This document shows positions 11,024 through 11,710 of a stretch of 64,000 nt of DNA, piece after piece. The translations under genes and the position numbers were made by a program. Each line of letters begins with the position of its first letter. The first letter of the stretch is position 1. A model generated the notes under the pieces. That model worked only from the letters and a program-made list of their open reading frames with translations. It was not told the DNA's origin and did not search any database. This stretch comes from Promethearchaeia archaeon (lineage in GTDB: Archaea; Asgardarchaeota; Lokiarchaeia; Sigyniarchaeales; SOKP01). The stretch covers positions 62,001 to 126,000 of the forward strand of contig JAHQWJ010000062.1 in the NCBI GenBank assembly GCA_029856125.1, written 5' to 3'.

Positions 11024-11710
11024 ATGCATAGCGTTGAAAAATTGTTTATTCTTAATAATGAAGTAAAACTGGAAGCTGAAGTTTTTCAGATAGAAAATGA
11101 AACACCTAGTTGCGTTGCATTAATGTGCCATCCACATCCTCAATTTCTTTGGGTTTAAATCCCAAGAAAGGGAAAGTATGGCGGGGACATGTATAATAAC
11201 GTTGTATCGGGTGTTTTCAATTCGTTCGTTAAAAAGGATATATCCTGCATACGCTTCAATTTTAGAGGGGCGGGTAATTCGACAGGGGATCATACAAGCG
11301 GTAAGGGCGAATTAAGCGATGTTAAGGCTTGTGTTGACCATTTAACGCAGAGTTTACATTTTGATAGAGTTTTTATATGCGGGTATTCCTACGGTGCAGC
11401 TATAGGGTGCTCTACTATCAATTATTCCGAAAAAATAATTGGATATTGTGCAATTTCTTTTCCTTGGGACTTTATGAGCGTCCAATATAAAGAGTTATCT
11501 CAATCGAAAAGACCAAAATTGTTCATTCAAGGGGATATGGATACAGTAGCCCCTTATGAAAATTTTATGAAACACTTTAATTATTATTCAGAGCCAAAAA
11601 AATTCAAGATTATAGAAGGGGCAGATCATTTTTATCAAAATTTTGAAGAGGTGATTAGTAGAGAAGTATTGAACTTTTATGATTCCATAGCTCAAAATCC
11701 AATTTCATAA
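11024..11710 (+). CDS. Alpha/beta hydrolase (CHPHP family), interrupted by a 33-nt in-frame insert (putative BHB intron 11143-11175)
   Basis: ATG at 11024 gives MHSVEKLFILNNEVKLEAEVFQIENETPSCVALMCHPHPQ, then an in-frame TAA; the same frame resumes as YGGDMYNNVVSGVFNSF...CGYSYGAAIG. The ORF track only lists 11189-11710. Confidence 0.82.
11143..11175 (+). other. Putative archaeal BHB intron (33 nt) inside a protein-coding gene
   Basis: Inner stem 44-49/64-69 plus 51-53/61-63 (T50 bulged, 7-nt loop); 5' bulge CAA 41-43; central 4-bp helix TCCT 37-40 / GGGA 70-73 (one GU); 3' bulge AAG 74-76; outer helix CCACA 32-36 / TATGG 77-81 (one C-A mismatch). Add 11100 to offsets. Cuts CA|A and AA|G excise 33 nt and rejoin CCT CAG TAT GGC. 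Confidence 0.75.

What the first reader, a model, noticed from the sequence alone, without database searches (positions are those of the whole stretch)
11143..11175. 33-nt BHB mini-intron carrying an in-frame stop inside an alpha/beta hydrolase gene
Seen directly: the frame from ATG 11024 reads ...VALMCHPHPQ, hits TAA at 11156, and resumes in the same frame as YGGDMYNNVV. In my recollection of this hydrolase family, CHPHP(x)(Y/F)GG is continuous. The extra DNA is exactly 33 nt and forms a 9-bp hairpin. Together with flanking exon bases it fits the canonical archaeal hBHBh geometry: 3-nt bulge CAA, 4-bp central helix TCCT/GGGA, 3-nt bulge AAG, outer helix CCACA/TATGG. Cleavage after the second base of each bulge removes 11143-11175 and creates CAG (Gln), restoring the protein. 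Established: the archaeal tRNA splicing endonuclease cuts BHB motifs and RtcB ligates; BHB introns in protein-coding genes are known but rare (e.g. crenarchaeal cbf5). A 33-nt in-frame one would be unusually short.
Basis: partly seen in the sequence, partly recalled or inferred. Interest (0 to 1): 0.93.

Follow-up and report, generated by a model that had tools for sequence, protein, structure and literature searches.

The report
Mini-intron in a Lokiarchaeal hydrolase gene

Summary
Window 11143-11175 (33 nt, in-frame TAA at 11156) interrupts an alpha/beta hydrolase gene of a Lokiarchaeota MAG. The motif alone is not significant, but comparison is decisive. I found 36 copies of the insert (19 genomes of one family, 17 metagenome contigs); 35 are readable across the gene. 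Lengths are 30 to 34 nt. All 35 frames are broken unspliced (33 by a stop inside the insert, 2 by frameshift alone), and all are restored by excision at the same bulge-helix-bulge (BHB) position, giving HPHPQ(Y/F)GG as in intronless orthologs. Hairpin and exon flanks covary. The Pro codon in the central helix is CCT in 33/33 carriers but 20/38 intronless copies. Exons are under purifying selection. One relative has lost the insert precisely. The genome encodes a two-subunit splicing endonuclease, RtcB (inside the window) and several intron-containing tRNAs. No RNA evidence was available, so splicing itself is inferred. Corrections: 33 nt is ordinary (cbf5 introns are 16-38 nt), and the cut site is ambiguous by one base. 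New member of a known kind: a BHB pre-mRNA intron, to my knowledge the first in a coding sequence outside crenarchaeal cbf5.

The parts
11024..11142 (+). Exon 1 of the alpha/beta hydrolase (MHSVEKLF...CHPHP + first two bases of the Gln codon)
   Evidence: Aligns to the N-terminus of intronless orthologs; dN/dS 0.09-0.61 in most pairs
11143..11175 (+). 33-nt BHB intron with in-frame TAA at 11156-11158 (11142-11174 gives the same mRNA)
   Evidence: conserved at the same site in 36 copies
11176..11710 (+). Exon 2, last base of the Gln codon to the stop (YGGDMYNNVV...; nucleophile elbow GYSYG)
   Evidence: Pfam alpha/beta hydrolase families on the spliced protein
11132..11136 (+). 5' strand of outer (exon) helix, CCACA, pairs with TATGG 11177-11181
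   Evidence: synonymous A-U to G-C compensatory change between Pro and Tyr/Phe third positions
11137..11140 (+). 5' strand of 4-bp central helix, TCCT, pairs with GGGA 11170-11173
   Evidence: 98% of cells paired; CCT invariant only in intron carriers
11141..11143 (+). 5' bulge CAA, cut predicted after CA
   Evidence: position rule from the established BHB geometry
11144..11169 (+). Intron stem-loop, 9 bp with a bulged U (TTTCTT-T-GGG / CCC-AAGAAA, loop 11154-11160)
   Evidence: U-A to C-G and G-C to A-U/U-A changes keep the stem
11170..11173 (+). 3' strand of central helix, GGGA
11174..11176 (+). 3' bulge AAG, cut predicted after AA
11177..11181 (+). 3' strand of outer helix, TATGG (codons Tyr-Gly)
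55704..57176 (+). RtcB RNA ligase gene (490 aa), the likely exon-joining enzyme
   Evidence: PF01139, E 2.9e-170

Best explanation
It is a BHB pre-mRNA intron. In the transcript, exon bases on both sides pair around a 30-34-nt hairpin to form a bulge-helix-bulge. The organism's hetero-oligomeric tRNA-splicing endonuclease cuts in the two 3-nt bulges and RtcB joins the exons, making one Gln codon (CA|G or CA|A) and a full-length alpha/beta hydrolase (217 aa in the window genome). Unspliced mRNA would give only a 44-residue fragment. Shown here: conservation, frame restoration, structural constraint, presence of the enzyme genes. Inferred: actual cleavage and ligation.
For: 35 readable copies, lengths 33 (21), 30 (5), 32 (4), 31 (4), 34 (1); every unspliced frame is broken and every one is restored by excision at the same site. 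Spliced proteins align without a gap at the junction to intronless orthologs. Codons Y/F-G-G-N/D/S, which lie between the intron and the first internal ATG, are conserved as amino acids with free synonymous change, so they are translated in continuity with exon 1. Pairing 94.5%; covariation 0.169 against a shuffled mean of 0.106 (0/500 as high) and at most 0.083 for slid structures. The intron can be identical while dS is 0.2-0.4. Pro codon CCT in the central helix: 33/33 carriers, 20/38 intronless. Precise loss in G007 nested among carriers. Endonuclease subunits on C135 (Tyr, His and Lys of the active site kept) and C56 (His lost); RtcB; several tRNAs with introns.
Against: No RNA data; no spliced cDNA seen among metagenome contigs or database proteins. 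The motif by itself is not rarer than chance. The outer helix has one mismatch in most carriers, and G049 needs a register shifted by one base. A crude scan of about 464 kb of the same genome found no excess of such motifs over decoy geometries (52 against 35-54), so it looks isolated; that scan was insensitive and did not list this intron either.
Confidence: 0.94

Rival explanations
1. Split gene: exon 1 is a separate short ORF or leader, and exon 2 is translated from the internal ATG 11189 as a 173-aa protein, as databases annotate it.
For: Public proteins closest to this one are 169-173 aa and match a start at that Met (77-79% coverage); ATG present in 32 of 33 carriers and preceded by a G-rich stretch.
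Against: The Met and the GG codons are conserved in intronless orthologs too. G010 has CTG there. Codons between intron and ATG are under protein-level constraint. Exon 1 is the conserved N-terminus of the enzyme. The insert structure covaries.
Confidence: 0.03
2. Translational bypassing (ribosome hopping) over the hairpin, as in phage T4 gene 60 or mitochondrial byp elements.
For: Hairpin of fitting size; would also restore the protein. Inference only.
Against: Bypassing as I know it needs matching take-off and landing codons. Here take-off CAA faces AAA, AAG, ATA, GAA or ACG in all 35 copies. It would not explain exon-exon pairing or the fixed CCT codon.
Confidence: 0.015
3. Stop-codon readthrough of a translated 11-residue insert.
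For: In the window copy the length is a multiple of three and the frame resumes.
Against: Nine of 35 copies have lengths of 31, 32 or 34 nt; stops vary and move; two copies have no stop but a frameshift.
Confidence: 0.003
4. Pseudogene or assembly/sequencing artefact.
For: MAG with 6% estimated contamination.
Against: Same insert in 36 separate contigs; intact spliced ORFs; dN/dS below 1 in nearly all pairs.
Confidence: 0.005

Closest known systems
BHB intron in crenarchaeal cbf5 pre-mRNA (Watanabe 2002; Yokobori 2009, PMC2738675)
   Same: Short BHB intron (16-38 bp) in a coding sequence; lineage-specific losses; linked by those authors to a hetero-oligomeric splicing endonuclease
   Different: Another gene (alpha/beta hydrolase), another phylum (Lokiarchaeota/Promethearchaeota); splicing of cbf5 was shown experimentally, here it is not
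BHB intron in the HVO_1309 mRNA of Haloferax volcanii (PMC7714728)
   Same: mRNA substrate of the splicing endonuclease
   Different: That one lies in the 5' UTR, not in the coding sequence
Archaeal tRNA introns
   Same: Same motif and presumably the same enzymes; the window's genome has several
   Different: Host RNA is a messenger; exon helices are built from codons
Putative 12-bp elements in archaeal virus genes (Peng et al., as cited in PMC2738675)
   Same: Small putatively removed insert in coding genes
   Different: 12 bp; splicing undemonstrated; not compared here

Membership tests
BHB (splicing-endonuclease) intron | Two 3-nt bulges on opposite strands separated by a 4-bp helix, flanked by helices | tested here: met
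   98% of central-helix cells paired. G049 needs a one-base shifted register with a U.C mismatch
BHB (splicing-endonuclease) intron | Excision at the bulges yields a functional exon junction | tested here: met
   35 of 35 readable copies, five lengths
BHB (splicing-endonuclease) intron | Structure under selection (covariation) | tested here: met
   modest but above all shuffles and slid controls
BHB (splicing-endonuclease) intron | Host encodes splicing endonuclease and RtcB | tested here: met
BHB (splicing-endonuclease) intron | Cleavage by the endonuclease and ligation in the cell | not testable with these tools
   Needs RNA
cbf5-type pre-mRNA intron (homology) | Located in cbf5 | tested here: not met
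   Host gene is an alpha/beta hydrolase; same kind, not the same intron
Group I or group II intron | Catalytic RNA core (Rfam) | tested here: not met
   No Rfam match in the window; 30-34 nt is too short for a catalytic core
Translational bypass element | Matching take-off and landing codons | tested here: not met

The most novel reading that the evidence does not exclude
BHB introns in coding genes are a wider, hidden class in Asgard archaea. Gene callers turn each into a truncated protein that starts at the next internal Met, and some of these introns may act as switches that make protein output depend on splicing.
Probability: 0.25. Interest if true: 0.88.

Novelty: new member of a known kind. 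Interest (0 to 1): 0.75.

Why it matters
A 2020 paper states that cbf5 was the only other BHB intron reported in an archaeal mRNA (PMC7714728). A second coding gene, in the archaeal phylum usually placed nearest to eukaryotes, with losses and varying lengths across dozens of copies, shows that endonuclease-type introns can enter and persist in ordinary metabolic genes. It gives a system for studying intron gain and loss without a spliceosome, and a warning that archaeal gene callers truncate such genes.

Tried and rejected
Motif-only significance: not significant, so not used as evidence. Covariance-model search for further copies: the window's genome and 232 genomes of the phylum gave only the orthologous site, one copy per genome, and no genome outside the family. 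The weak hits L083-L085 and L062/L065 are AT-rich stretches with no sign of a split ORF; L084 and L085 lie antisense to the start of a long ORF. Scan of about 464 kb of the same genome for frame-restoring BHB motifs with coding exons: 52 candidates, no more than decoy geometries, and by eye mostly gene boundaries; insensitive, since it did not list this intron. A metagenome pattern scan that would also have matched a spliced junction found no spliced version of a carrier gene. Literature searches for Asgard coding introns found none, but the library lacks preprints and most subscription papers. Gene tree: the intron sits in three clades (4 changes). One origin with losses is not excluded: a clade of carriers plus the intronless G007 is not rejected (p 0.12), while a clade of carriers alone is rejected (p 0.001).

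Full report
Observation. The frame from ATG 11024 stops at TAA 11156 within a 33-nt segment, after ...CHPHPQ, and resumes as YGGDMYNN. The segment with its flanks folds as a bulge-helix-bulge: outer helix CCACA/TATGG with one C.A mismatch, bulge CAA, central helix TCCT/GGGA, a 9-bp stem with one bulged U, bulge AAG. Taken alone, the fold is unremarkable (z -1.27) and BHB-like motifs are frequent in this AT-rich DNA (189 relaxed matches in the window). The cut site is uncertain by one base without effect on the mRNA.

Host. The window lies in contig C63 of a 3.69-Mb MAG. The spliced 217-aa product matches alpha/beta hydrolase families (Hydrolase_4, Abhydrolase_11 and others).

Comparison. A DNA search of 99 relatives found matches in 52. 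Reading the loci showed the insert at the same place in 19 genomes (17 of the window's genus g1, plus G038 of g8 and G049 of g4). A pattern scan of metagenome contigs added 17 more. Of these 36, 35 can be read across the gene (L086 lies at a contig end). Lengths are 33 (21 copies), 30 (5), 32 (4), 31 (4) and 34 (1). In 33 the unspliced frame meets a stop within the insert; in the other two (L102, L119) the insert has no in-frame stop but shifts the frame. In all 35, excision at the same position gives an intact ORF with HPHPQ(Y/F)GG. Spliced products align without a gap at the junction to 38 intronless orthologs.

Selection. Exon 2 has dN/dS of 0.06-0.32; exon 1 is mostly 0.09-0.61 with few sites per pair, two pairs being uninformative or above 1. 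The codons between the intron and the internal ATG (Y/F, G, G, then N, D or S) keep their amino acids while third positions vary freely, so they are translated together with exon 1. The internal ATG is CTG in G010. The insert can be identical between genomes whose synonymous sites differ at 0.2-0.4. The Pro codon whose bases sit in the central helix is CCT in 33/33 carriers but CCT/CCC/CCA/CCG = 20/8/6/4 in intronless copies, although relatedness among carriers weakens any simple statistic. Over 25 distinct rows, one of them an opposite-strand match of L014, 94.5% of cells pair. The covariation score is 0.169 against a shuffled mean of 0.106, with 0 of 500 shuffles as high and at most 0.083 for slid structures. 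Compensated pairs include U-A/C-G and G-C/A-U/U-A in the stem and A-U/G-C between third codon positions of the two exons.

History. A protein tree needs four changes: three intron-bearing clades and one precise loss in G007, nested among carriers. A single clade of carriers plus G007 is not rejected (p 0.12), so one origin with losses, or transfer between lineages, both remain open. A covariance model finds the intron in no genome outside the family among 232 of the phylum, and only one copy per genome.

Machinery. Two proteins of the tRNA_int_endo family are encoded. The C135 protein keeps Tyr, His and Lys at the active-site positions by alignment; the C56 protein has lost the His (the residue reading is mine). 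This points to a hetero-oligomeric enzyme, the type linked with pre-mRNA introns by Yoshinari et al. 2006 (cited in PMC2738675). RtcB lies in the window at 55704-57176. Several tRNA genes are predicted to hold introns.

Annotation. The closest public proteins (80-91% identical) are 169-173 aa and cover only 77-79% of the spliced protein, which matches a start at the internal Met, whereas intronless orthologs are 208-213 aa. The gene appears to be truncated in databases because of the intron.

Known kin. A 2020 paper counts cbf5 as the only other BHB intron in an archaeal mRNA, and itself adds one in the 5' UTR of HVO_1309. I found no report for Asgard archaea in the held library.

Verdict. A BHB pre-mRNA intron, confidence 0.94; shown by comparative genomics, not yet by RNA. 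New member of a known kind. A crude search for further such introns in about 464 kb of the genome was negative but insensitive.

Noticed in passing
window 55704-57176: The RtcB ligase gene lies in the same window, about 45 kb from the intron.
   Followed up: yes
L032 (G000:C135) and L033 (G000:C56): Two unlinked splicing-endonuclease subunit genes, one with the active-site His lost, suggesting a hetero-oligomeric enzyme in this Lokiarchaeal family.
   Followed up: partly
L201, L208, L209, L210, L212, L214, L216 and others: Several tRNA genes of this genome are predicted by ARAGORN to hold introns of about 8-36 nt.
   Followed up: partly
window 11189-11710: Public proteins for the intron-bearing genes are about 40 residues short at the N-terminus and match a start at the internal Met of exon 2.
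   Followed up: yes
L035 (G018:C247 end): The G018 contig breaks off just upstream of the intron site, so its state is unknown.
   Followed up: no
L028 (G049), 1939-2013: The G049 insert has an almost unrelated sequence but a comparable 9-bp hairpin at the same site, in a register shifted by one base.
   Followed up: partly
L026 (G038), L028 (G049), L022 (G007): Intron presence is patchy across genera g1, g4 and g8; G007 has lost it exactly.
   Followed up: partly
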